Positions 6,780 through 52,319 of a DNA stretch of 64,000 bases are shown piece by piece (positions within the stretch are counted from its first letter, which is position 1; the number at the start of each line of letters is the position of its first letter). This DNA is from Onthophagus taurus. Taxonomy: Eukaryota > Arthropoda > Insecta > Coleoptera > Scarabaeidae. The notes below the pieces were generated by a model, which worked only from the letters and a program-made list of their open reading frames with translations, was not told the origin of the DNA and did no database searches. The translations under genes were made by a program, and so were the position numbers. Location: positions 24,599,001-24,663,000 of the forward strand of contig NC_091968.1 in the NCBI RefSeq assembly GCF_036711975.1, in the 5' to 3' direction.

Positions 6780-8540
6780 TCCTCCATAATGTGTCGTTTA
6801 AGCGTCTGCGATTTTACTGGCTTTCCTGACTTGTTCAAATACTTCCTCCTCAATATTCAGCCTGAGAATCACCGAATTAACTTTTTCGTTGTTCTGATGC
6901 ATTTAGTTTTTTGAGCAGCAATGGAGATGTTGAATTGTTTCGTTATCTATTTTCGTCATTGATCACTCATTTTGTAGCCTTTTTGTAGACATTTTTTTAT
7001 GATTTCATCCATTACAAGATTGAATGGTAGTGGACTAAATGAATACCCTTGTCGAATGCCAGCATTTACAAATATTTCCTTAGTGAGTTTACCCTTTATC
7101 AGTGCTTGTATCCTGTTTTCCGAATAGATGGTTTTAACTATATTTGTCGGTATTCTGCGGTTGTATAGCAGATTTATGACATCCTTTAATCTGATCTTAT
7201 CAAAGGCCTTGTGTAAATCAATGAAACATAGTAATGGGAGTTTATTATATTCTGTTGACTTTTCTACGACTTGTCTCATCACGAATACAGCATCTGTACA
7301 GGACCTCCCTAACCTAAAGCATTGTTGTTCTTCGGCCAGTGTTGTAATGGAATTAATTTTGGTTGTGATAATCTTGGTTACTAGTTTGAGCGTGGTACTA
7401 AGTAAGAGTGCTTGTTATCCACGTTTGGTATTTATTGCTCACTTAAAATTTTGTTTATCAACGATGTTATTTCCATTATAAACTGTCTCCTCCATATTTT
7501 AGTAGATCTCATTTGGGATCTTGTCTTGACCTGGTGATTTTCGGTTTTCTTAGCCTTTCTCTGACATTTTCTCTTAACTTTCTTTGTCTTCCTGTATGTT
7601 ATTGGCTTTAAACACTTCTGTTAGATACTTTACCCAAGTGTTTTTCTCTATTTTATTCGTTTCTACCAGTTCGTTTATCTTTTTTCTCTGTTGTTTCACC
7701 AATCTCCACATTTGCTTCTGTAGACTGTAAAAATCTGATGTAATTCTTCTCAAACTAATTCTTGCGTCTTAAGAGTTTTATATTCTAGTTGCACTTCACA
7801 TTTCACTTTAATTTCTATTCTAAACCACGGAGTTTTATTTGGTGTATGGTTTAGTATTATTTTTCTGGTTCCTAGTGTCTCAGCAGTCTTCTATGTCGTT
7901 TTCCCATCCTATTGGTTCGTGCAGATTTTCTCGGTTATCCCTTGTTGGTATAGAAATTTTGTGGACTCATTCCATAGAGCTTTAGTGTTGATCTTTTTCT
8001 CTTTCAGTAAGTAAGCTTATCATCATTTCCGATATTAGCCGAGGTTAGAGTTCTGACATGTATTATTTGGGACTGCTCATCATTGATTTCTGCTCTCTGC
8101 TATATTCGAAAGTGTACTTGTATGTGTCTTTGTGGTTATAGAGCGTATTATTAATCCTAAGGTTATTGAGTGACCATAGTAATTCCCCGTTATCATTGAT
8201 GTGGTCTTCGTGAAACCTCTGCTTGATTTCCAGTATTACATTACTACTTCATCTGGTGTTATTAGGTTTATTCTTTTCTCTCTTCTTTGGGTTTACAAGT
8301 CTTCTGGGCTGTATAGGGCTATAATATAAATGTTTTGTTGTTCTCTCCTTAGTTTTATTTCCAAAATTCTTTCGTATTTAGTTTAGATAAGATTGCCCAC
8401 TCCAGCGGCTGCTCGCTTTTTCTTATCAACCTTGCTATATACCAGTACATAGTCTTCATAGTCCTTCTGGTCTTTCCTCACAGTTCGCGATTTTCCCGTT
8501 TTGGAGCGAGTTCGAGAACTCAACGCTAGATTATATTCTG
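6780..8540 (-). mobile_element. Decayed non-LTR retrotransposon (LINE), reverse transcriptase and endonuclease remnants
   Basis: On the minus strand, 7282-6956 encodes reverse-transcriptase blocks: FIDLHKAFDKIRLKDVINLL, then a GIRQGYSFSPLPFNLVMDEI segment matching the conserved GxxQGxxxSPxLFNL motif. Farther upstream on the same strand, 8460-8380 reads DYVLVYSKVDKKKRAAAGVG, as in the apurinic endonuclease region of such elements. Stops and frameshifts lie throughout, so the element is inactive. Order and orientation agree with one 5'-to-3' LINE on the minus strand. Confidence 0.75.
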
Positions 8541-17300: not shown

Positions 17301-20300
17301 TTATATTACGGATTATATTGCATAATAATGGAGTCAGACAGATATACTTTAATGGACGAAAGTGCTATTACCTCCCTAGATGGTTCATTAACACAAGCAA
17401 ATCAATTAGCTACACAAGCTTTTTCACGGTATGACATCTTTAACTCCCAACACAAAACTAAGTAGATGTTAAGAAATATTGATAGTCTGAGGAAATTACA
17501 GCTTGTCAATATTTATTGGCCATATTGACAAATATATTATATTGATCGTGTGAAGGGCGCTTTATGGGAATTAAAAATATCGTACATATATAAAAACTAT
17601 TAAATCATAAACATTTCATTTTAATCAATTCAATAATAAAGTTTGCAGAAAGTCCTTCAGAACTTCCCGAACCAAAGCTCTCCACCTCAAACCACGAAAA
17701 CAACGAGACAACATCTCCAAACTCGACGTCTCAAGATAGCGTAACGCCCTTAAAACAGGAAATAGCATCCCTCAAAGCCCAACTGTTGGAGGCGCACGCG
17801 AAACTTTCGGCCTACGAAACCACCACTCGAAGCACCACGCCCACAAAAGACGTCGAAGACGCAACCACTAAGACCTTAGAATCGGTAGAATCTCAATTGG
17901 AAACCGATTGCGAGCAACCGCCGAAAAATTTTTACAACAAAAACGAAAATTTAATTAAATACGGAAACATCGTACCAGTTCATAAAAGTCACGGTTTGAC
18001 GAATAGGAATGGAATTGGGATTCCCAGGGCGACCATTACGAAAATGGCGGAGAGGATTAAATTAAAAACGGTTTCGGATGATTTAAAAGATTTTAGTTCG
18101 AACGAGGTAACGATTAATGGCGAGGAATTATCGACGATCGTCGCCGAACATATCGTCGGTGACATTTTGAGACAATGTGATAGTCAAAGTGAAAAGCAAG
18201 CGGTTGAAATTGAATTTAAAAGATTAACGGCGAAATTGGAACATGCAAGGTCGCAAAATTCTGTGTTAGCCTTGACTTTATCAGAAACGAAAGCTCATTG
18301 TGATAGGTTAGCACTATTATGCGGAAAATACGAATCAAACGCGATTGCGTTACGTTTAGCTCTTGGAATGTGTGATAGAGCAATAGAAGCATACGACGTT
18401 TTATTAGCACTCTTAGAAACTGAGTTATCATTAAACGAAAACAACGTTTTCATCCATTCAAAATGCTTAGATAATCGAACGGCCGCTGAAACTGTTGCAA
18501 AACAACTTTTAACACATCTCGATTCATATCAAAGTACCGACGTTTTGTTATCACCCTGGCAAAATCATATTAATAACACCCCAACGATTGAAAAGTAAGT
18601 TCCTATATTTTAATTAATTTTAATCATATTCGTTTATTTTTAAGTGATGAATCTTGGACAACCGATCATGAAAATCGTCTTCGTGAACATGTATCCCGTT
18701 TAAAAGCTGAAAGAAGTAACATTCAAGGAACGTACGTGGTTTTAGAATCAACCCAAGTCGATCACGTCCCAATTCGACCTTCGAGCAGTCAAGAGGCGAG
18801 AAAATTAGATCTTGAAATGGCGGTTTTAATGCAGGAATTGATGGGGTTGAGAGAGGAAAAAGCTGAATTAGTCGCAAAATTATTCGTTATGGAGAAGGAA
18901 AAGTGTACGATTGAATTAAAGTTGAAGTATGTGGAAGGGCAACAAAAAGCTCAAAGTGCGACTTTAAAAAATATACAGGGACAGTTAAAAGATACTGAAG
19001 CATTATTGGCAATTGCTACGCAAAATAAGGTAATTTTATTATCCCCACTCCAAAAATCTGTCTCCAGTCCATCACCTTCTCCCCCTTTCTCTTCATTGCC
19101 ACAGCGAAATCTGGACACCAATCTCTTCTCTTCCTCGTCCCCTTCCATCAATAGATACTTTGGCAATTCCTCTGTCACTATCTCTCCATACCTTAACATT
19201 ATATCTTTCTTCCTGTATCTCTGACCTTCTTTCTTGTCTCTGTATATCCTTGTCCCTATCCTTTAGTTCTCTCCACAATTCGCCTCTCTCCACTCTTCTA
19301 TTGCCTATTCCATTTATTGAATATCCCACTTTCTTACAATATCCTTCCCTATCTCCCTGCCCATATACCAGCCTCCTCTCTTTAATTTCCCTTCTGCACT
19401 CTTCCAGGATCCTGCAATGCGGTCTTCCCTCTATCCTTTCCTCATATTTCACTGCTCTTCTCCCAGCCTCCACCCTCATTATACAGGTTGTTTCAGGTTT
19501 TTGTATCAGAATGTTAACAACCGATATTTTTTTTAAAATTAAAACAAAAACTTCATATAGAGATACAGAGTGTTCAAATTAAATTTTTAAATTAATTTTT
19601 TTTTTTTTAATTAGACGTGTATTTGAATCGATTCTATTCAAATTTGGTATACGGAGGTTTTTTGGCATGAAAAAAACGGTTATGGCGTCCGTTTTACTAT
19701 AGCCGGTAGAGGGCACTCTGTACAGGGTGGGTAAACTTGGATGTTATTATAGGTTATCTCAGAAACTATAAGAGATACGAAAAAAGTAGGTGCCATATCC
19801 CGGTCTCATTTTCCAAGACTAATCCAATCTCGCAAAGATCAAACGTCTATCTTCTTTTGTTTTTAAGTCATAGCCAATCAAAATTTCGAACATTAATGCT
19901 TACTATTTTGGAATTGAAAATTAACACTTATTTTCCGCAAATACACTATACATGGGATACATCATTGAAAAGCTAAAAATATGCTCTTTTCAGTAACATC
20001 ATAATCAACTATAGTTTGTATTTAAAAAATACAACTTTGTGTTATATCTCGAAAATCATCAAGAAGGTTTAAAATTTTTCAACGTAAATCCTACTAAAAA
20101 AAAGTGTCTTAAGAACGTATCAACAACCCCATATTTCTCTAATTTCAAAAATAAACGAAATACGAGCATTTTTTAAAATCACAAAAATTTGACTTTTTGG
20201 CTATAACTTAAAAACAAAAGAAGATAGATGTTTGATATTTGCGGGATTGGATTACTCTCGAAAAAAGAGACCGAGACATGGTGCCTACTTTTTTTGTATC

Positions 20301-25046: not shown

Positions 25047-27065
25047 TTTCTAACACTAGACCGAGAACCAGAAACATTCGGATTTAGCCCCAAGTCTTTC
25101 AAGACGGCTAAACCCGAATGATTCTAGTTCTAGGTCTTGTGTCAGTTCTAGTGATAGTGCTAGTGTAAAACTAGAACTAACACTAGAACTAGAAACATTC
25201 GGATTTAGCCCCAAGTCTCTCAAGACGGCTAAACCCGAATGATTCTAATTCTAGGTCTTGTGTTAGTTCTAGTGTTAGTGTAAAACTGGATGATCATTTG
25301 ACTGAAGCCAATTTGAAAACTGTTTCTTTTAGTGATCCTTAAAGGGTTTATTAACTACAACGTCTAAAACCTGCAGTTGTGAAGCCATACCACCAGGAAT
25401 AATGATTGACTAAAAAGTGACCCCGAAAAGCATCCAATATAAACATTGCTCTCTCTCCATCATTCCTTTGTTGATTTGCCCAAATACTTCTTGTCCAATC
25501 TATAACCAGTGCTTAGTCCCTTGGTACGATTTTTCTTTTAAGTACCACATAAGAAGAAAGTTTTGTTCCGTCAGCAAGTACTGCTAACATAACCGCTACC
25601 CTCGATTTTTCATTTCCTGTTGTTTTGATTAGAACAGATTTTTCTCCTTTTTTATTTATGGTATAATTTGAAAATCAAAATATACTGGTGTTTGATCCGC
25701 ATTACATAATCAAGTTTAAAGCATATTTGTGCTGTTTTCTTAAGTTTATTACATAACGTTGATATTTTCAATTAGTTTTTCCTCAAAATCTTTAGGAAGT
25801 TTTTGGACTAACGTTGTACGACGTCGCAAACATAATCCTAACCACCATTCTTCTGCGCCATCCATAACTTGCCATCCATAACTTATTGTAGTTTGAGGGA
25901 TATTTTTGCTTTTAGCTATTTCTTGAGTTTTTAATTGAATTGTTTCTCTTGTATGTGGAAATCCTTGTCCACGCATTTCATTTGCAAAATTACAAAACAA
26001 CAATTTCATCAATTTCTGGAAATCTACCCTTTTTGGGTCCTCGAAAGAATTCTTGTGTTGAATGAGCATTCAAAAGATTTTCTTTTTGCAATCGCCAACG
26101 TCTAATATTGCTTTCTGTTGTACCATACTTTTTAGCGGCTGCACAATTGTTTGTTTTTTCTGCTTCACGAATAGCCATAATTTTAAAATTGGCATCATAG
26201 CGTGTTCGGATATTTTTACCTATTTGACCTTTCGCCTTACCCCGTTTTTCAACTCGATCACACATAACTGATGCGGCACTCTCAACAAGTCTAATCCAGG
26301 AGTGCTGTATTACCCTTTTTTTTAGAAATGGTGTGTCAAACTTAATACAACTTAATAGACATAAGTTTTTCAACCTCAATCAAACTAATATGTTTTTCTC
26401 GCAAAACTACCGACTTTTGTTATTTCATTTGTGACTACTATATAGTATGGTTAATAAGGATTACATTATTTGACCGTAGTACATAAAGATTTAACGATTT
26501 TTAGCATTTTTAGAAATAGACATTACTAAGAGACATGGAATTTTTTTCTTATTTTTGCCAGTTGGCCTCTCGCGCGATACCCGCTTGGTATTGAGATTCG
26601 GGACACCTGTATATGGTCACAAACGGAATATTATAAAATTTGAACACAGAATCAGAATGAACAATAGACATGAATATACAAGATATTATACGCCAATATA
26701 ACAATATTTTTCTCATTGGTTATGTTAAAACAGTGTGGTTCCCCATATACTGATTGAATAGCATTTTACGCCACCTGTTACGACGCCATCTAACGCCATC
26801 CTGAGTACAGTACGTATTTTTAAATTAAATTACAGATTTCTAAATTACCGTACATTTTTGTACGGTATTCAACTTTGGACGTACGTGTACGGTAATTACC
26901 GTACGTATGGCAACACTGACTCTCGGTCTAGTGTTAGTTCTAGTGGCAGTGGTAGGTAGCGCTAGTTAGCATAAGATATTACTATGTTGTATATTTTTAT
27001 TGCACAAAAACTAACACTAGACCTAGAAATATTCGTATTTAGCCGTGCGTCTAATAATTTTTATA
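25047..27065. mobile_element. Palindromic 'CTAG' element, split by a pogo-type insertion
   Basis: Repeated phrases built from CTAGTGTTAGTTCTAG and its complement surround palindromic cores of the form CATTCGG(G/A)TTTAGCC ... GGCTAAACCCGAATG. Two tandem hairpin cores lie at 25073-25122 and 25195-25242. The other flank at 26920-27052 has the same phrases and ends in TTCGTATTTAGCCG. A related compact copy with both ends lies at 48359-48627. I do not recognise the family. The region between holds the pogo transposase remnant. Confidence 0.6.
25300..26379 (-). pseudogene. Dead pogo-superfamily transposase
   Basis: From 26379 downward the minus strand encodes a helix-turn-helix of the Brinker/CENP-B kind (YDANFKIMAIREAEKTNNCA, then AAKKYGTTESNIRRWRLQKE). 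A second HTH part follows: FPHTRETIQLKTQEIAKSKN and RRRTTLVQKLPKDFEEKL. The DDE part follows at about 25675-25500 (EKSVLIKTTGNEKSRVAVML, AVLADGTKLSSYVVLKRK). Several frameshifts and stops separate these blocks, so the gene is inactive. The DNA-binding domain is of the same general type as the host gene brinker in this window, but it belongs to a transposase. Confidence 0.8.
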
Positions 27066-28623: not shown

Positions 28624-29511
28624 TTATGGCAAACCCGGTAATGTTAATCGAATCGCCCCAACTTGTTTTTCTTTAGACACCACAGTTCTAAGTGCTGGAG
28701 GTTGCCTAATTTTTCTCCCAAATCGTCCGGTTTTTCTTTGCCACAATCCCGATCGAGGTCTATTCCCAAGTTCCCTATTTTTTTGTGCAGTACCAATCGG
28801 TGTAATATTATGCGTTATATTACTTAACCTCCCAACTGTACACATACAATTTTCTGGTAAAGAAAATTCCCTTTTGCTTGGTAATTGTATAACAACTCGA
28901 TTATTACTATCTTTTCTTGTTATCGTGGCGGCTGAACCAGCTGCATGAACCAAAAATCCACCAAGACCTGGATATTTTTCAACACAATGTACTTGTATTC
29001 CAATGGGAAGAGCACCCAAAGGAAAAGCATCACCGATATTAGCACGAACTGGAATTCTTGGGATATAACTTGAAGTGCGAATTAAATCACCCTCTTTTAA
29101 ACCATGAGGGGCTAAAATGTATCTCATTTCATCGTCGCGAGCAACTAAAGCCACCAAAGATGTACGACACCCATCTTTTAAAATTTTTATTACTTTTTCA
29201 ACAATAGGCTCACTTTCATCTTTTGGACCATATCTTTGCCATTGTATCCAATGGTATTTGTGTTTTATTCCACCCCCGATTCCTCTTACAACCATCCGCC
29301 CCGTTTCGGGGTCTCTCCCCCCTAAATTAGTCACTTCTAAGGGCTTAACCGTGTATTCTTTGGGATAATGAATTTTTCTTCGAAAAGCCACCCCTTTACC
29401 AATTTCCGGTTTAATTATCCATTTCATACATCTCACCGATGGTAAAATTCTTGGATTTAATGGTAATTCAATTAAAGATAACTTTTGAAGTGCGTTTATT
29501 AAAATTGCCAT
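28624..29511 (-). CDS. mRpL2: Mitochondrial large ribosomal subunit protein uL2m
   Basis: This is an intronless 295-codon frame with ATG at 29511 and TAA at 28624. uL2 organises the peptidyl-transferase region of the large ribosomal subunit; this copy is the nuclear-encoded mitochondrial version. Visible features are a short N-terminal presequence-like stretch, then TNLGGRDPETGRMVVRGIGG and IKHKYHWIQW (RNA-binding OB-like half), and IRTSSYIPRIPVRANIGDAF, GALPIGIQVHCVEKYPGLGG and HAAGSAATITRKDSNNRVVI (SH3-like half). The C-terminus RELGNRPRSGLWQRKTGRFG follows the animal mitochondrial pattern and lacks the bacterial HPHGGGEG loop. Length matches animal uL2m. A minus-strand AATAAA lies just downstream at about 28590. 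Its 3' end is duplicated at 24852-25046. Confidence 0.96.
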   Translation of the reverse strand: MAILINALQKLSLIELPLNPRILPSVRCMKWIIKPEIGKGVAFRRKIHYPKEYTVKPLEVTNLGGRDPETGRMVVRGIGGGIKHKYHWIQWQRYGPKDESEPIVEKVIKILKDGCRTSLVALVARDDEMRYILAPHGLKEGDLIRTSSYIPRIPVRANIGDAFPLGALPIGIQVHCVEKYPGLGGFLVHAAGSAATITRKDSNNRVVIQLPSKREFSLPENCMCTVGRLSNITHNITPIGTAQKNRELGNRPRSGLWQRKTGRFGRKIRQPPALRTVVSKEKQVGAIRLTLPGLP

Positions 29512-29635
29512 TTTTAGGTTAACTTTTTAGTGAGTTTATTTTATTTGAAGTTGGATAACCTGTTTTTTGACATTTATTCAAGTTGTATACAAAATAACGG
29601 TTTGATTTGGCTTAAATTATTTTTAAAAGTTAATA
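29512..29635. promoter_or_regulatory. Divergent promoter interval, mRpL2 and serendipity-like gene
   Basis: Only 124 bp separate the two opposing start codons (mRpL2 ATG at 29511 on the minus strand, the other at 29636 on the plus strand), so both promoters must share this AT-rich interval or overlap the transcribed ends. No TATA box at a sensible distance was identified. Confidence 0.6.
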
Positions 29636-32600: not shown

Positions 32601-35600
32601 ATATTGGAATTAAACGTATCATGTTTGGGCTCATTTTAAAGGATTTTTCATGACGATTACAAATATGTCAAAATTGAGGTTGACATTTCTAACCGGAAGT
32701 TGACCATAACTTCGTTAATATTGAAGATAAATATGTCCTGTTTATATTCATTTTAAAGGAATTTTAATGAAGATTACAAATATGTCAAAATTGAGGTTGA
32801 CATTTTACACGGGTAAGAAAAAACTTTCAGGTGTTAATGTCAACTTTAATTTTATTATCATATTCGTAATCTTTATAAAATAACCCTTAAAATGAGTCCA
32901 AACATGACGCACTTATCTCAAAAAACAAAAAAGTTAGAATAAAAAACATTACACCCGAAGTTAGCAACAATGAAGATAGCAATTTAATTTTTAAATATTA
33001 AAACCAACCTTAATTTTTGATTTTTTTAATTATATTTTTGTTTTTGTGACAAATTTTAAGACATTTTATAAAATTAAAAATATATCAAAATGACATTGAC
33101 ATTTCAAACCGGAAGTTGCTTATATCTCGAGTAATATTGGAATTAAACGTATCATGTTTTGACTCATTTTAAAGGATTTTTCACGACGATTACAAATATG
33201 TCAAAATTGAGGTTGACATTTCTAACCGAAAGTTCACCATAACTTCGTTAATATTGAAGATAAATATATCGTGTTTGTACTCATTTTAAAGGATTTTTAA
33301 TGAAGATTACAAATATGTCAAAATTGAGGTTGCTATTTTACACTAGTAAGAAACAATTTTCAGGTGTTAATGTCAACTTTAATTTTATTATCACATTCGT
33401 AATCTTTATAAAATAACCTTTAAAATGAGTCCAAACATGACGCACTTATCTCAAAAAACAAAAAAGTTAGAATAAAAAACATTACACCCGAAGTTAGCAA
33501 CAATGAAGATAGCAATTTAATTTTTAAATATTAAAACCAACCTTAATTTTTGATTTTTTTAATTATATTTTTGTTTTTGTGACAAATTTTAAGACATTTT
33601 ATAAAATTAAAAATATATCAAAATGACATTGACATTTCAAACCGGAAGTTGCTTATATCTCGGGTAATATTGGAATTAAACGTATCATGTTTGGGCTCAA
33701 TTTAAAGGATTTTTCACGACGATTACAAATATGTCAAAATTGAGATTGACATTTCTAACCGGAAGTTCACCATAACTTCGTTAATATTGAAGATAAATAT
33801 ATCGTGTTTGTACTCATTTTAAAGGATTTTTAATGAAGATTACAAATATGTCGAAATTGAGGTTGACCTGATGTATGTTTCGTGATTTTTCGGTAAATTT
33901 TACACTTTTCCGCATTTTTTTTTATTTGTAACGGCTTACTTGAGCGATTTCCCGTCGATTAAAAAGAAATTTTCGATTTTTAAGCGACATGGTGTTTCTT
34001 GAATACTTTATTTTTTTATAATAACAATAATTATTAATCATAATTGATTTAGGAAGCGAGATATTTTGTGATTAAACAGCTACAAACATGTTTCGAAGGA
34101 ATCTCTCTAATTCTCATAAACGATCGTTTAAATAAACCGAACGGTTCTTTTTTAAAATACATGGATCTCTCGCTGGATAAGCTCTCACAAATTAACGCCG
34201 AGATTAATAATAAAAACGATCTGATTAAAAATTATCACGCCGCTAAAGATTGCATCGAAGAAGTTCTTTGTTACGCAATGTCGATCGCTCAAGTTTCATC
34301 GATAGACGATTCGAAAGTAATTAAGGGAAATAGCAAAGCGGTTTTGGAGGAACTTGAAAGTTTACTTGTCGAATTAAATAAAGACGAAATTAAAATTAAT
34401 TTTTGTAACCTTTTTATCGATTGTTGTTACGATAAGTTGTGTGTATTAGAAAAAAAGGTTAATTTTGCCGTGTTAAAATTAAGTTTAAAAGTTTTTTGTG
34501 ATTACACAAAACCGGTACTCGATTTAAACAATTTTTGTTTAAATAAAGAAAAAGACGAGGAACAATTTGACGAATTAATAATTAATTTGGATAATCACGT
34601 CGATCGAATCATGCAAGTTGGGTTATTTGCTATTGCGGCATCGCCTCAAATCAAAAGTAATTTATCTTTAGTTTAAAATTTTTTATGATTTATTATTAAT
34701 TTTAGTTGGGATACAAATGGAAAGTTGTTTGGCGAGTTTAGAAGCTTTGGAAGGTGAATTAGTACCAAGTTTTAATCGTTTATTACTCAATCCTAATTTA
34801 CAATCAAAAAATTATTCGTACCTTCTCGAACAATTTTGGATCCAACAAGCAAATAATCTTAAAGAATTAATTTATAACATTATCGATCCGTTCGCTTTTT
34901 GCCAGGTCGTTTACGAAGAATTAAAATTACACATAATCGAGATCAATGATTATTTAAAAAATGAGAGTACAAAAATAAGTTATTCAGATAAATTTAAAGT
35001 TATCATAAAAGAAAATTGGATTTTAGTCGATTTAATCGGAATTTCGATTAAAGAAATGGATTTAGATAATAAAAAGGATATTGAAAAAAATTTAAATGAA
35101 GTTAAATTAAGTAAATTGAAATTTTTTGAGGTCTATAAAAGATTATTTTATTTTCTTTCTAGTTTTAAACGAAATAAAAAGTGCGAATATTTTATTATTA
35201 GTCAATAAATCGGAAATAGAAGCGAATAACATTCAACGTGTTTTTAAGAGGGTTAAAATTTTAAAAGGAACCGTCCGAAAGTTATTATTTAGTTTATCAA
35301 ATACGGATTTAAAAAACGGTATAATTTTAATTTTTTTTTAATTTATTTTTTATTTATTTTACGTTTTTTTAGATTTAAATTCTCCTGGGGGTCTAAACGA
35401 TAAAACCGACTCGTTTTTTGATGATGATAATAAGAAATTAAACCAATTTGTCGATAGAGGGAAAGAAATTTTAACTGAAAGGAGTATTTTGTATAAAACA
35501 CCATCTAAAAAATTATCGACAAGAAATTGTCAGACATCTTTGGTAAAATGCACTAAAAAATTAGATCTTAACCGACCCATGCCGCTTCTTAAAACAATCC

Positions 35601-39558: not shown

Positions 39559-40513
<955 letters not shown>

Positions 40514-41050: not shown

Positions 41051-44000
41051 CAATATTAAAAGGATTAAATAAATTTTTTCATTAATCACATGATGCGATC
41101 AATAATTAACACACAAACAAATCTATATTTTATTATGTCAATGTAAACGTCAATTTTGACGTTTAATGTTTATGTATCATAATTGAATTTTATTTATTTT
41201 TAAGATGATTTTTTTATTATTTAATGCCTAGATAATCGAATTTGATTTAAACGAAGATATGCTTCCGAGTGAAGGAAGCATAATAGACTTATATAACTTA
41301 CTCTAGATCCATGAGATAGGCAGCACAAGATGTGAAGGTAATAAGAGGAGCAGAACTGGATAACTGATACCAACCTGAAATCAAATCTCAATCATGCTTA
41401 TCCGAATTTATGGAAAATTCTTCTTGATATTTATGAACGTGTTTAACACAAGCAGGTATAAGACACGATAGTAAAGTCATAATCTTTAATTCCTTGAATC
41501 GCGTTCTGCAATTGTATCATTGGAACATTCTCAATAGTATTCGTATCACCTTCCTTTCTAGTTGTTTCAAAGTACACATTTCTTGCTTCTTTCAAAGGTA
41601 AGCTTTTAATTATAACTTTTAAATAGTACAAATCAAATTTTTCTAATAATCTATAGTTTTTTATGTCAATGTAACTGTCATTTTGACGTTTAACGTTAAG
41701 TAACGTATCCTAATTGAATTTTATTTATTTTTAAAATAATTTTTTTATTATTTAATGTCTAGATAATCGAATTTGGTTTAAACAAAGGTTTATTTAAAAA
41801 AATTTTATAAAAAATTATGAATTAATTAATTGTTAAAATAATGTCAATGTAAATGTCATTTTGACGTTTAACATTAAGTAACGTATCCTGATTGAATTTT
41901 ATTCATTTTTAAGATAATTTTTTGATTATTTAACGTTTAGATAATCGAATACGGTTTTAACGAAAATATTTTAAGGTTTATTTAAAAATTTTTGATAAAA
42001 AATAATTTAATTTAGTGTCAAAATAATGAAATTTCAAACGTCAATTAAGTGTTTTTGATCTATTTTAATCTTAAAAGTCGTAAGTTGTGTTTAAATTTTA
42101 AATATCGATGATTTCGTTCTTTGGTACGACAAAATCCCATCAAATTTACTTTTATTAAAATTGTTTAATTAAATAAATTCAATATTAAATACATTTTTCT
42201 AATAATCCATAGTTTATTATGTCAATGTAAATGTCATTTTGACGTTTAACTTTAAGTAACGTATCCTGATTGAATTTTATTTATTTTAAAGATAATTTTT
42301 TGATTATTTAACGTTTAGATAATCGAATATGGTTTTAACCAAGATATTTTAAGGTTAATTAAAAAAAATTTTGATAAAAATCGTAATTTAATTTTGACTT
42401 TTTTAAGTGTCTAAATAATGACATTTCAAACGCCAATTAAGTGTTTTTGATTTATTTTAATATTTTTGAGTAAATAGGTACAACGAAATCCCATCAAATT
42501 TACTTTTATTAAAATTGTTTAATTAAATAAATTAAACAGTATTAAAAGAATTAAATACATTTTTCTAATAATCCATATTTTATTATGTCAATGTAAATGT
42601 CATTTGGACGTTAAGTAACGTATCCTGATTGAATTTTATTCATTTTTAAGATAATTTTTTTATTATTTAACGTTTAGATAATCGAATATGGTTTTAACCA
42701 AGATATTTTAAGGTTAATTAAAAAAATTTTTGATAAAAATCGTAATTTAATTTTGACTTTTTTAAGTGTCTAAATAATGACATTTCAAACGCCAATTAAG
42801 TGTTTTTGATTTATTTTAATATTTTTGAGTAAATAGGTACAACGAAATCCCATCAAATTTACTTTTATTAAAATTGTTTAATTAAATAAATTAAACAGTA
42901 TTAAAAGAATTAAATACATTTTTCTAATAATCCATATTTTATTATGTCAATGTAAATGTCATTTGGACGTTAAGTAACGTATCCTGATTGAATTTTATTC
43001 ATTTTTAAGATAATTTTTTTATTATTTAACGTTTAGATAATCGAATATGGTTTTAACCAAGATATTTTAAGGTTAATTAAAAAAATTTTTGATAAAAATC
43101 GTAATTTAATTTTGACTTTTTTAAGTGTCTAAATAATGACATTTCAAACGCCAATTAAGTGTTTTTGATTTATTTTAATATTTTTGAGTAAATAGGTACA
43201 ACGAAATCCCATCAAATTTACTTTTATTAAAATTGTTTAATTAAATAAATTAAACAGTATTAAAAGAATTAAATACATTTTTCTAATAATCCATATTTTA
43301 TTATGTCAATGTAAATGTCATTTGGACGTTAAGTAACGTATCCTGATTGAATTTTATTCATTTTTAAGATAATTTTTTTATTATTTAACGTTTAGATAAT
43401 CGAATATGGTTTTAACCAAGATATTTTAAGGTTAATTAAAAAAATTTTTGATAAAAATCGTAATTTAATTTTGACTTTTTTAAGTGTCTAAATAATGACA
43501 TTTCAAACGCCAATTAAGTGTTTTTGATTTATTTTAATATTTTTGAGTAAATAGGTACAACGAAATCCCATCAAATTTACTTTTATTAAAATTGTTTAAT
43601 TAAATAAATTAAACAGTATTAAAAGAATTAAATACATTTTTCTAATAATCCATATTTTATTATGTCAATGTAAATGTCATTTGGACGTTAAGTAACGTAT
43701 CCTGATTGAATTTTATTCATTTTTAAGATAATTTTTTTATTATTTAACGTTTAGATAATCGAATATGGTTTTAACGAAGATATTTTAAGGTTTATTTAAA
43801 AAATTTTTGATAAAAAATTATAATTTAATTTTGTCTAAATAATGACATTTCAAACACCAATTAAGTGTTTTTGATTTATTTTAATTTTTTTTAATTTTTG
43901 AGTAAATAGGTACAACGAAATCCCATCAAATTTACTTTTATTAAAATTGTTTAATTAAAATTAAACAATATTAAAAGAATTAAATAAATTTTTCTAATAA

Positions 44001-44860
44001 TCCATATTTTATTATGTCAATGTAAATGTCATTTTGACGTTTAACGTTAAGTAACGTATCCTAACTGAATTTTATTTATTTTTAAAATAATTTTTTGATT
44101 ATTTAACGTTTAGGTAATCGGATTTGGTTTTAACGAAGATTTTTTAGGATTTATTTAAAAATTTTTGATAAAAAATTATAATTTAATTCAGTGTCAAAAT
44201 AATGACATTTCAAGCGTCAATTAAGTGTTTTTGATCTATTTTAATCTTAAAGGTCGTAAGTAGTGTTTTAATCTTAAATATCGATGATTTCGTCCTTTGG
44301 TACAACAAAATCCCATCAAATTTACTTTTATTAAATTGTTTAATTAAATAAAATAAACAATATTAAAGAAAATATTTCAATAATCCATAGTTTATTATGT
44401 CAATGTAAATGTCATTTTGACGTTTAACGTTAAGTAACGTATCCTAATTAAATTTAATTTTTTTTTAAGATAATTTTTTGATTATTTAACGTTTAGATAA
44501 TCGGATATGGTTTTAACGAAGATATTTTAAGGTTTATTTAAAAATTTTTGATAAAAAATCATAATTTAATTTTGACTTTTTTAAGTATGAAAATAACAAC
44601 ATTTCAAACGTTTAAGTGTTTTTGATCTATTTTAATATTTTTGAGTAAATAGGTACAACAAAATCCCATCAAATTTACTTTTATTAAAATTGAATTAAAA
44701 TTACAACATATTAAATAAATTAACAAATTCGAATAATCTATATTTTATTATGTCAATGTAAAGTCATTTTGACGTTTAACGTTAAGTAACGTATCCTAAT
44801 TAATTTAGTGTTAAAATAATGACATTTCAAACGTCAATTAAGTGTTTTTGATCTATTTTG
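41050..44860. repeat. 359-bp satellite array
   Basis: The marker CAACGAAATCCCATCAAATT occurs at 42481, 42840, 43199, 43558 and 43913, a period of 359 bp (355 for the last interval), with almost no differences among the units between 42480 and 43790. Flanking units (41100-42480, 43913-44860) are more diverged. Each unit contains TTATGTCAATGTAAATGTCA, TTAAGTAACGTATCCTGATT and TTATTTAACGTTTAGATAAT. Bases 41240-41640 are a non-satellite interruption; a 62-codon minus-strand frame at 41631-41443 there has no recognisable domain. Confidence 0.93.
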
Positions 44861-44929
44861 GAGTTAAAGCTGGTAATTATAGATTTTGTTATAGGAAAAA
44901 AAAAGATAATTCTTTATGTTGAGATTCCG

Positions 44930-45709
44930 TTACGTAATTGTAACATTTTGAAGCGCCACACGTTCTGGGAGAGCTGAAAAAACAGAGACCCCCGGTTCAC
45001 AGGTAGCGGTGGCGCAAAAAGACTCGACTATATCGCCCCCTTTAACCCGCACACCCACGTGGGGCCCCTCTTACCAGTCCCGTCGACCCTCGTGCCCCCT
45101 CTCTCTCCACCCCCCCTCTCCATACACCGACCTCAATGGGCCGGGGGCCTGCCTGCGACGGACCCGCGTCGCTATGTCTGGGTAGACCAAGCCTGGCGAC
45201 ACTGTGTCTGGCGTGACCGGTCGCCACGTTGCCAAGCGTTCATCAAAAAACAATCAAAATCGCCCAAATCGAGATAAAATCGCGGATTTTTTTCGACTTT
45301 TCGCGCGATTTTAAGTGAAACTCAAAGAGTGTTGCGAGTTAAATAGTGCGATTTTTATGTAAAAGTGTCGGTTTTTGTTCGAAACGAAAATCGACAACGT
45401 CGCGTTTAAACTTGTTTCATAAACGCCGCTCGAGTTCGGCCATTCGTAAACGACCTACGTTTCAAGAAGGATGTTTATTTGAGGTTACGTTGAAAGGAGA
45501 TAAAGAGTGTTGTTTAAAATCGCGTTTTATAAAGTTTAGTCAGCCGATCGTGGAGGGGTTTTACTTTTTCGTTCCGTGAATCGAAAAATGGTAGATCTAC
45601 GTAGTCGACGTCGTCGGGAGTGATTTTCGTTTGTCTCTTCATCGAGTGTTTTAAAAAAAAAATTGATTAAAACAAAATAAAACAAAAAAATTGTTTTTTT
45701 TTTGGGGTT
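44930..45709 (+). promoter_or_regulatory. GC-rich promoter and 5' leader region of brinker
   Basis: Composition changes sharply from satellite to GC-rich DNA at about 44950 and stays so to about 45260, followed by a CpG-rich leader up to the brinker ATG at 45710. Short open frames on both strands within 45040-45280 are proline/arginine-rich and overlap one another, as expected from GC-rich non-coding DNA. Two matches to the Dpp silencer consensus lie at 45165-45210. Confidence 0.65.
45165..45210 (+). promoter_or_regulatory. Two Mad/Medea/Schnurri silencer-element matches
   Basis: In Drosophila, brinker is repressed by Dpp through GRCGNC(N5)GTCTG elements, bound by Mad (first half) and Medea (second half), with Schnurri recruited. 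Bases 45195-45210 read GGCGAC-ACTGT-GTCTG, a perfect match including the 5-bp spacer. Bases 45165-45180 read CGCGTC-GCTAT-GTCTG, differing only at the first base. The two are in the same orientation and exactly 30 bp apart, about three helical turns. The GTCT at 45176 also pairs with AGAC at 45184 as an inverted Smad-type motif. Function is inferred. Confidence 0.7.
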
Positions 45710-46813
45710 ATGGCGCATGGTGTAAACGCAATGTTAAAGAAATTGGAGAGTAATAAAACGGGCGTCGGCTCAAGACGTATATTCCCGCCTCATTTTAAAC
45801 TTCAAGTGTTGGATTCGTATCGAAATGATGTTGATTGTAAAGGGAATCAAAGAGCGACTGCGAGGAAGTATGGGATACATCGGAGGCAGATACAAAAATG
45901 GTTACAAGTCGAGGGGAATTTAAGAAATAGTGTTTCGACGAATAATGTTAATGTTAATATTAATAAGGGTAAGGAAGAGATTAAAAAATGCGACGTGGCC
46001 TTGAAATGCGAAACTGAGACTACTACTACAACGGTGTTCCCGTTGGATTTTACGACGCGCAACGATCGCGTCCATGGTAGCCCGAGTGTCGCCAATCCAA
46101 ACCCATCCTCTTTCCCCGCCTCACCCATCGACCTATCGCTCAAACGACCGACGCCGTGTACACCTGTGTGCTTCCCCCTTTCCCCGCCGCATTCCTCACC
46201 GCCGCCACACCTATCGCCATCTCGCGTCCATATTAACATCGCAAACGTACCGGAACCAAACGTCTGGGATTTATCAACAAAAAGAAAATCATCGAATCAC
46301 GACGAAGATGATTTGCGACAAACAAAACCGATTAAATTATTTAAACCATATCTCCTCGACGATTTAAATTTAAACCAACACGATGAAAACGAAAATAGTC
46401 GAGATACGCCATCTACAAATAGTTACGATTACTACACCAACAACAACAATAATAATAATAATAATACAATAACAACCAATAATAACATTTACGAAACATA
46501 TACAATTCAAGAATTACACCCAAAAAATAATTCGATTATTTATTATTATCATCCATATCCGTTATATCCAAGTCCGGAACCGTTCGTGACGTCATCGTAC
46601 GATAATAACGAAAATAAGAGGCAAAGTTATAGTTTGGATTTTAAATTGAGCGCGATCGATTCGTATTATCGCGATGATTTGTGTCGTGGTAATCAAAGAG
46701 CGGTTGCGAGTAAATACAACGTTCACCGGAGACAAGTGCAGAAATGGTTGCAACAAGAAGATGAGCTGCGACAAAGAAATGATAAACACCATCATATCCA
46801 CGTGGCGAGTTGA
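45710..46813 (+). CDS. brk: Brinker, transcriptional repressor of Dpp/BMP targets, with two Brinker-type DNA-binding domains
   Basis: A single-exon frame of 367 codons from ATG at 45710 to TGA at 46813. Brinker binds GGCGYY-type sites and represses Dpp target genes. Residues 22-71 form the Brinker DNA-binding domain (RRIFPPHFKLQVLDSYRND, then KGNQRATARKYGIHRRQIQK and WLQ). A second copy lies at 303-352 (KRQSYSLDFKLSAIDSYYRD, then CRGNQRAVASKYNVHRRQVQ and KWLQ). Repression motifs are visible between them: PIDLSLK at 139-145 is a CtBP-binding PxDLS site, and FKPY at 211-214 matches the Groucho-interaction motif of fly Brinker. The rest is low-complexity Pro/Ser/Asn sequence, including an Asn run at 244-252. 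Fly Brinker is about 700 residues with one such domain, so this protein is short and carries an extra copy. Confidence 0.93.
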   Translation: MAHGVNAMLKKLESNKTGVGSRRIFPPHFKLQVLDSYRNDVDCKGNQRATARKYGIHRRQIQKWLQVEGNLRNSVSTNNVNVNINKGKEEIKKCDVALKCETETTTTTVFPLDFTTRNDRVHGSPSVANPNPSSFPASPIDLSLKRPTPCTPVCFPLSPPHSSPPPHLSPSRVHINIANVPEPNVWDLSTKRKSSNHDEDDLRQTKPIKLFKPYLLDDLNLNQHDENENSRDTPSTNSYDYYTNNNNNNNNNTITTNNNIYETYTIQELHPKNNSIIYYYHPYPLYPSPEPFVTSSYDNNENKRQSYSLDFKLSAIDSYYRDDLCRGNQRAVASKYNVHRRQVQKWLQQEDELRQRNDKHHHIHVAS

Positions 46814-51475: not shown

Positions 51476-52319
51476 AAGTTTAAAATCTTTAGACGCCCTC
51501 AAACCGTTCCAAGTTTATTTGTAGCCCAAGCATTTTTACATGGTCGTCGCGAGAGCGCACCCGGTTTAAGAATAAACAGGCTGACTTCGAACATCAGTCT
51601 GGCAAAGAGTCATTTTAACGCCCATCTACATTCATTTTTATCGCTTTATTTAATAACGAAGCGAACAGAACAAAAGATAATTGCTGAAATCGTCCACCAA
51701 CTACATTCTACATTCATTTCATTATCTTTTATACGTCGCAATTAATTAATCGTTTACTAATCACACAAACATTTCCTTGATAACAACAGACAGCGATGCG
51801 TCTGACATTATCTTATTTGTTGTATGATTTGTACCAAACTCAGAGAAAAATCGTTTTGTAGGATATTGTGTAAGCCTGTTCCCCTCTCTCTCTTTTAATC
51901 AGTTTCAAATTGGCTTGAATAGTTGGAAAAAATAACGTAAATGGTTTAGTTAGAAGCGCAACTCGATGATAATAACGACCTTGCAGGCCGCAAATAATCA
52001 TTACAGCACGTTCGGCATCCTTTTTCCTTTTATCGTTGCCGACGAAATGTTCGCTCGACGGAGCCAAATTGTCTGCTGCCGTCGCTGTTGCTGTTGCCTT
52101 CGCTTTATGTAATTCTCAGAAATTTATTTTCGTACACTCGACAAATGTCACGTCATTTTTTTTTAACGTGACAGTGACAGATAGATAAGTTGGTAAAATA
52201 GATAACGCTTATTCAAGTTTTGTTTAACTTACATTATTATTATTATAAATAATACATTTAATTAACTTTGTATTAAAAATTAATTATTTATTAGTTTTTA
52301 GCGCCACCTTTGAGTAATA
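51476..52319. other. Non-repetitive spacer of mixed composition
   Basis: No gene is supported. Bases 51480-51610 and 51990-52100 are GC-richer than the flanks (for example GTCGTCGCGAGAGCGCACCC). A 75-codon minus-strand frame at 52067-51840 (MAPSSEHFVGNDKRKKDAER) has no recognised family. Bases 52140-52320 have counterparts at 57245-57420 and, more degenerate, 61125-61250 (GATAGATAAGTTGGTAAAAT), so they belong to the unit that was duplicated with the serine protease homologue genes. Confidence 0.4.

What the first reader, a model, noticed from the sequence alone, without database searches (positions are those of the whole stretch)
45165..45210. Dpp silencer elements upstream of a beetle-type brinker gene, spaced 30 bp apart
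A perfect GGCGAC-N5-GTCTG and a one-mismatch CGCGTC-N5-GTCTG lie in the same orientation 30 bp apart, about 500 bp before the brinker start codon. The GRCGNC(N5)GTCTG element is the known Mad/Medea/Schnurri silencer that represses brinker in Drosophila. A perfect 11-position match in a short promoter-proximal interval is unlikely by chance, although the region is GC-rich. The three-turn spacing suggests cooperative assembly.
Basis: partly seen in the sequence, partly recalled or inferred. Interest (0 to 1): 0.75.

Follow-up and report, generated by a model that had tools for sequence, protein, structure and literature searches.

The report
Paired Dpp silencer sites upstream of brinker
Just upstream of the developmental repressor gene brinker in an insect genome sit two neighbouring copies of the DNA switch that flies use to turn this gene off in response to the growth signal Dpp; it is very probably real, but it is a further example of a switch already known.

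Summary
Window 45195-45210 (+) is a perfect GRCGNC-N5-GTCTG; 45165-45180 (+) differs only at position 1, the class (NRCGNC-N5-GTCTG, "SEm1") that binds Mad-Med-Shn weakly and acts in vivo in fly brinker (PMC3738585). They lie 499 bp before a brinker ORF.

Chance is a poor explanation. In shuffles of the GC-rich island the perfect site has P = 0.0025, and 0 of 4000 shuffles gave a same-strand pair. The genome (290.8 Mb) has 439 perfect matches, 223 of them one repeated word, retrotransposon-borne in the 10 copies compared. A close same-strand pair (linker 0-30 bp) occurs once, here. The genome encodes Mad, Medea and a Schnurri-like locus with a C-terminal zinc-finger triplet resembling fly fingers 6-8.

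Most likely this is a genuine Dpp silencer pair, one strong and one weak. "Three-turn cooperativity" is unsupported, "beetle" was not established, and conservation in other insects could not be tested here. From memory, a conserved SE upstream of insect brinker genes is published (Rebeiz et al. 2012, not held). A new member of a known kind.

The parts
45195..45210 (+). Silencer element SE, perfect: GGCGAC (Mad) - ACTGT - GTCTG (Medea), with T at position 15
   Evidence: only perfect match in 64 kb
45165..45180 (+). Silencer element of the weak 'SEm1' class: CGCGTC - GCTAT - GTCTG (mismatch at position 1 only)
   Evidence: class NRCGNC-N5-GTCTG bound and active in fly brk (PMC3738585 passages)
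45166..45188 (+). First 23-nt repeat unit: the element plus a shared 3' extension (GTCTGG-N3-GACC)
   Evidence: the repeat finder family D3, 74% identical, 30 bp apart
45196..45218 (+). Second 23-nt repeat unit with the same 3' extension
   Evidence: RCGNC-N5-GTCTGG-N3-GACC occurs 2 times in 290.8 Mb, these two (pattern built after seeing them)
44940..45260 (.). Single-copy GC-rich, CpG-containing island holding the pair; probable promoter-proximal region (inferred)
   Evidence: 59.5% GC; one match in genome, itself; profile
45710..46813 (+). brinker coding sequence, one uninterrupted ORF of 367 aa
45767..45937 (+). BrkDBD 1, 112 bits
   Evidence: 85% identical to the fly domain of 2glo
46619..46774 (+). 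Second, C-terminal BrkDBD, 63 bits
   Evidence: 49% identical to the first
39715..40059 (-). Atg5 exon on the 5' side of brinker; atg5 is also a neighbour of brk in Drosophila, but on its downstream side
   Evidence: Pfam ATG5_HBR and ATG5_UblB; PMC3738585 passages
52060..52075 (+). Possible weak SE of the position-3 class (GGAGCC-AAATT-GTCTG), 5.2 kb downstream of the ORF; may be chance

Best explanation
The pair is a genuine Dpp/BMP silencer at brinker. When Dpp signalling phosphorylates Mad, two pMad and one Medea bind each element (Mad on the GRCGNC half, Medea on GTCTG). The fixed 5-bp gap and the T at position 15 let the complex recruit Schnurri through its zinc fingers 6-8, and Schnurri shuts brinker off. 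Brinker is then expressed only where Dpp is low and represses Dpp targets there. The perfect element would be the strong one and the position-1 variant a low-affinity one engaged mainly at high Dpp. Shown here: the sequence, its rarity, the gene, and the presence of genes for the three trans factors (Schnurri by position and finger pattern). Inferred from Drosophila: binding, complex assembly and repression.
For: Exact consensus match and one validated-class variant. Among spacers 0-15, GRCGNC and GTCTG (both strands) and NRCGNC and GTCTG (+ strand only) are combined in the window at N5 alone. Close same-strand pair unique in 290.8 Mb and located at the gene where it is expected. Shuffle P = 0.0025 for the perfect site and 0 of 4000 for a same-strand pair. 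brinker identity and Atg5 linkage. Mad: 462-aa stop-to-stop frame, best match fly Mad 3gmj. Medea: two MH1 exon pieces, best match Smad4. Schnurri-like locus on C7: the two best hits of a Schnurri-type finger pair 3 kb apart, then a finger triplet further 3', two fingers found by pattern and one read by eye across an inferred intron. All 13 relaxed SEs of fly brk bind Mad-Med-Shn, SEm1/SEm3 bind weakly and act in vivo, and other insects are said to have fewer SEs at brk (PMC3738585, passages and section 6).
Against: No cross-species conservation could be tested; the two collections scanned are of prokaryotes and viruses and gave no brinker. No binding, expression or start-site data; no TATAWAW, TCAKTY or TCANTY motif was found in 44900-45720, only looser initiator matches, so 'upstream of the promoter' is inferred and the pair could lie in the 5' UTR. 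Single perfect matches occur about once per 1.35 Mb outside the repeated word (216) against 165 for the reversed pattern, so the consensus alone is hardly enriched. One-mismatch matches in the window exceed the shuffle mean (8 against 0.45). [quoted passage not shown] The finger triplet was not compared with fly fingers 6-8 by a tool.
Confidence: 0.86

Rival explanations
1. The two matches are chance products of a GC- and CpG-rich promoter island; a reader looking for known motifs near a known gene found one.
Against: Composition-matched shuffles give a perfect site in 0.25% and a same-strand pair in 0 of 4000; the pair is the only one with a 0-30 bp linker in 290.8 Mb. brinker is the textbook target, so few hypotheses were tried.
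Confidence: 0.08
2. The elements bind Mad-Medea but activate, or act without Schnurri, as related 5-bp composite SMAD motifs do in vertebrates.
For: Vertebrate 5-bp composite motifs mediate activation (PMC11907993 passages), and SE-like sites are said to activate in vertebrates (PMC4161316 passages).
Against: A Schnurri-like locus with a C-terminal finger triplet is present; fingers 6-8 are lacking in vertebrate Schnurri proteins (PMC10853822 passages); brk is derepressed by dpp RNAi in the midge Clogmia (PMC5683363).
Confidence: 0.04
3. Only the perfect element works; the 45165 copy is a decayed or non-functional duplicate, the two 23-nt units being the residue of a local duplication.
For: The two units are 74% identical over 23 nt, extending past the consensus; fly SEm1 sites bind only weakly (PMC3738585).
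Against: In 45165 all consensus positions but the first are kept although the spacer and flank have diverged, and that class is active in fly.
Confidence: 0.25

Closest known systems
Drosophila brinker silencer elements (SE; GRCGNC-N5-GTCTG, Mad-Medea-Schnurri)
   Same: Consensus, 5-bp gap, T at position 15, linkage to brinker, coexistence of perfect and position-1-variant elements (PMC3738585, passages and section 6)
   Different: Fly brk has 13 relaxed-consensus elements over its locus; here one perfect element (4 relaxed matches in 64 kb, one of them inside the brinker ORF) plus one position-1 variant 30 bp away, both within 550 bp of the start codon
Conserved SE plus 'Downstream Element' upstream of insect brinker genes (Rebeiz et al. 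2012, Dev Biol 362:282)
   Same: By recall of its abstract, a particular SE conserved upstream of insect brinker genes; PMC3738585 cites it for fewer SEs at brk in other insects
   Different: The paper is not held; the Downstream Element sequence was not seen, so whether the shared 3' extension GTCTGG-N3-GACC is that element is open
brk promoter-proximal element (PPE) of Drosophila
   Same: Promoter-proximal control region of brinker (PMC3782659 passages)
   Different: Described by enhancer hand-off and Brk autoregulation; the word silencer does not occur in that paper. One TGGCGCT Brk-type site lies at 44952-44958 here, not tested
Vertebrate 5-bp SMAD composite motifs (ID1/2/3 type)
   Same: GC-rich SMAD site and SBE separated by 5 bp (PMC11907993 passages)
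   Different: Activating; vertebrate Schnurri proteins lack fingers 6-8 (PMC10853822 passages)

Membership tests
Dpp silencer element (SE) | GRCGNC-N5-GTCTG sequence | tested here: met
   45195-45210 perfect; 45165-45180 all but position 1
Dpp silencer element (SE) | Exactly 5-bp gap between half sites | tested here: met
   Spacers 0-15 scanned in the window: only N5 occurs (the NRCGNC form on the + strand only)
Dpp silencer element (SE) | More frequent at the target than chance gives | tested here: met
Dpp silencer element (SE) | Linked to a Dpp-repressed gene | tested here: met
   499 bp before brinker; Dpp repression itself not tested in this species
Dpp silencer element (SE) | Mad and Medea encoded in the genome | tested here: met
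Dpp silencer element (SE) | Schnurri with fingers 6-8 encoded in the genome | tested here: met
   assigned by position and finger pattern, finger 6 read by eye across an inferred intron, no comparison with fly fingers by a tool
Dpp silencer element (SE) | Binding of pMad-Medea and recruitment of Schnurri | not testable with these tools
   needs gel-shift or ChIP
Dpp silencer element (SE) | Repression of brinker in response to Dpp | not testable with these tools
   needs reporter or RNAi
Conserved insect brinker SE + Downstream Element | Same element upstream of brinker in other insects | not testable with these tools
   no insect genome other than the window's own was on hand; searches found no brinker
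Conserved insect brinker SE + Downstream Element | Presence of the Downstream Element | not tested
Brinker protein | Brinker DNA-binding domain | tested here: met
   PF09607 two stretches, 2glo 102 bits

The most novel reading that the evidence does not exclude
The functional unit is longer than the fly consensus: SE plus a 3' extension (RCGNC-N5-GTCTGG-N3-GACC), unique in the genome to the two copies at brinker. It would be an ancestral brinker-specific silencer module (perhaps the published SE plus Downstream Element) that was tandemly duplicated here into a strong and a weak copy, so that one compact two-threshold switch does the work of the many dispersed SEs of Drosophila.
Probability: 0.2. 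Interest if true: 0.5.

Novelty: new member of a known kind. Interest (0 to 1): 0.36.

Why it matters
It supports a direct, ancient wiring of Dpp to brinker outside flies and offers a compact two-element version of a switch that in Drosophila is spread over 13 relaxed-consensus elements. That would make it convenient for testing how element number and strength set a morphogen threshold (PMC3738585 remarks that brk loci with fewer elements might be good simpler models). It adds an example rather than a principle.

Tried and rejected
Cross-species test: scans for brinker relatives in genome contigs and viral contigs, which hold prokaryotes and viruses (the hope was contaminating insect contigs), found none. 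Activating elements (GGCGCCA-N4-GNCV): none in the window. Brk self-binding: 19 TGGCGYY matches in 64 kb counted on both strands, one upstream in the island at 44952; too frequent to mean much. Core-promoter motifs in 44900-45720 to place the start site: no TATAWAW, TCAKTY, TCANTY, motif-ten, bridge or DRE match; looser initiator patterns and short DPE words do occur and were not pursued. Beetle identity by telomere repeat: one interstitial TTAGG run on C3 (two overlapping matches), 10 for the reversed control, uninformative. The second same-strand pair, on C7 with a 31-61 bp linker, lies in a dispersed inverted-repeat family (80 matches, 40 of 617 candidates scored). The genome's other SE matches were not examined for Dpp target genes: about 100 of 439 places were listed and 30 fetched, of which 10 were compared. 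Of the seven MH1 places, C3 (L043) and C8:3849184 (L045) were not assigned by a tool; the latter reads like NF-I by eye. In the Schnurri search 150 of 630 candidates were scored and 130 matched; the locus was chosen as the best two hits.

Literature: a conserved insect brinker SE was sought; in the listings and in the passages I opened, only PMC3738585 speaks of it, by citation. Papers were seen as passages from 'find' calls (PMC3738585, also section 6 whole; PMC3782659, PMC4161316, PMC5683363, PMC5956798, PMC8051952, PMC8918798, PMC10853822, PMC11907993); other listed papers were not opened. Rebeiz et al. 2012 was not seen; its abstract is recalled.

They name the retrotransposon frames, show the C7 pair to be repeat-borne, and extend the Pfam scan. 

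Full report
What is there. The window holds one perfect match to the Dpp silencer element, GGCGAC-ACTGT-GTCTG at 45195-45210 (+), and CGCGTC-GCTAT-GTCTG at 45165-45180 (+), which departs from the consensus only at position 1. Both point the same way as the gene and are 30 bp apart. The ATG of a 367-aa ORF (45710-46813) follows after 499 bases. The ORF is brinker: Pfam BrkDBD at 156 bits and fly Brinker 2glo as the only solved structure matched at E up to 0.001. An Atg5 exon lies 5.7 kb before it (39715-40059, - strand). atg5 is also a neighbour of brk in Drosophila, but there on the downstream side, with unc-119 upstream (PMC3738585, passages). Of the 39 stop-to-stop frames of 100 aa or more, the brinker ORF and 30 others were scanned with Pfam; none was unc-119.

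Is it more than chance? I tested this in three ways. First, dinucleotide shuffles of the GC-rich island 44940-45260: a perfect site in 0.25%, any NRCGNC-N5-GTCTG in 0.9%, a same-strand pair in 0 of 4000; in two longer stretches (44710-45709 and 44940-45709) a perfect site in 0.05% and 0.2% and again no pair. Second, the genome: 439 perfect matches in 290.8 Mb against 165 for the reversed pattern. Of the 439, 223 are one exact word, GRCGACCATGGGTCTG. Ten copies of it were compared and all belong to one repeat; in the copy scanned, L001, the frames match reverse transcriptase and RNase H, and the word lies in the reverse-transcriptase frame. The remaining 216 are about 1 per 1.35 Mb, hardly above the reversed control. 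Third, the arrangement: among 1480 single NRCGNC-N5-GTCTG sites, exactly one same-strand pair with 0-30 bp between the cores exists, and it is this one (reversed control 0; about 0.1 expected). With 31-61 bp there is one more, on C7, inside a dispersed inverted-repeat family. One result runs the other way: one-mismatch matches in the window number 8 against a shuffle mean of 0.45, so shuffles understate near-matches in real DNA.

What the second site is. PMC3738585 (passages) found that fly brk keeps residual repression after 13 elements are mutated, and in one fragment traced it to two sites with one mismatch at position 1 (NRCGNC-N5-GTCTG) or 3 (GRNGNC-N5-GTCTG). These bound Mad-Med-Shn weakly and mattered in vivo; two still more degenerate ones did not bind. 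The 45165 site is of the first class. A position-3 match lies at 52060-52075, 5.2 kb downstream of the ORF, and may be chance.

Trans factors. Of seven MH1 places in the genome, one is Mad (L040, a 462-aa stop-to-stop frame; best match the fly Mad structure 3gmj), one is nearest the Smad2/3 kind (L041) and two are exon pieces of Medea (L044, L042; best match Smad4). Further 3' on the same strand lie two more C2H2 fingers and, before them, a third whose halves are separated by an inferred intron; no further finger was found by that pattern down to position 5,580,000. In flies fingers 6-8 bind the Mad-Med-SE complex and are lacking in vertebrate Schnurri proteins (PMC10853822, passages). I did not compare this triplet with the fly fingers by a tool, nor show that all fingers belong to one transcript; the assignment rests on position and finger pattern.

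Mechanism. pMad-pMad-Medea binds each element, the 5-bp gap and the T at position 15 admit Schnurri, and brinker is repressed where Dpp is high. The strong and weak elements could give graded repression. The sequence, its rarity, the gene and the factor genes are shown here; binding and repression are inferred from flies. In the midge Clogmia, dpp RNAi derepresses brk dorsally; in Tribolium brk is reported not to be expressed in the early embryo (PMC5683363, passages), so in this insect the switch may act mainly later, for example in appendages (inference).

What I do not accept. Thirty base pairs is about 2.9 turns at 10.5 bp per turn. I found no evidence for cooperation between elements; in human cells, changing the spacing of a third SMAD motif relative to a 5-bp pair did not alter the response, although distance of the pair from the promoter did (PMC11907993, passages). 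Whether the animal is a beetle could not be tested.

An extra feature. The two sites are parts of a 23-nt direct repeat, 74% identical, that runs past the consensus into GTCTGG-N3-GACC. The extended pattern occurs twice in the genome, at these two places; it was built after seeing them, so the count is descriptive. It is a candidate for a longer brinker-specific unit. By memory, Rebeiz et al. (2012) described a conserved SE plus a 'Downstream Element' upstream of insect brinker genes; the paper is not held, so I could not compare.

Verdict. A real and very probably functional Dpp silencer pair at an insect brinker gene: a new member of a known kind, of moderate interest.

Noticed in passing
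window 46619-46774 (+): The brinker ORF carries a second, C-terminal Brinker DNA-binding domain (63 bits), 49% identical to the first. A paper search listed seven papers, none opened; the phrase 'two Brinker' is in none of the seven. Whether this is common outside flies is not known to me.
   Followed up: partly
L001, L002, L004, L006, L017, L018, L021, L024, L029, L030; 223 genome places of the word: A non-LTR-type retrotransposon family (reverse transcriptase and RNase H frames in L001) carries GRCGACCATGGGTCTG, a perfect silencer-element consensus; the word has 223 exact copies, 10 of them compared. In L001 it lies in the reverse-transcriptase frame, so it is probably a coding coincidence, but the copies could titrate or disperse Smad sites.
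   Followed up: partly
window 42123-44776: A 359-bp tandem array (7.4 copies) ends about 160 bp before the GC-rich brinker island.
   Followed up: no
window 25749-26379 (-), with relatives of its BrkDBD-like part on C7, C1 and C6 (L036-L038): A BrkDBD-like ORF diverged from brinker, next to a frame with a weak Tc5-transposase DNA-binding match (20.2 bits, below the cut-off); probably a transposon's helix-turn-helix.
   Followed up: partly
G000:C1, e.g. 1392686-1392747; G000:C7:33040236-33040500 (L039): Words CAGACAGGACGTCGC and CAGACAGTACGTCGC recur as inverted pairs about 47 bp apart; a query around a similar pair on C7 matched 80 places in both orientations, with only 40 of 617 candidates scored: a dispersed inverted-repeat family.
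   Followed up: partly
window 34053-35208 (+), 28624-29526 (-), 17594-18598 (+), 6956-7414 (-): Other frames: Serendipity-alpha-like, ribosomal L2-type, USHBP1 PDZ-binding-domain, and a reverse transcriptase.
   Followed up: no
L040 (G000:C2:19310525): Mad is encoded in one uninterrupted stop-to-stop frame of 462 aa in this genome.
   Followed up: no
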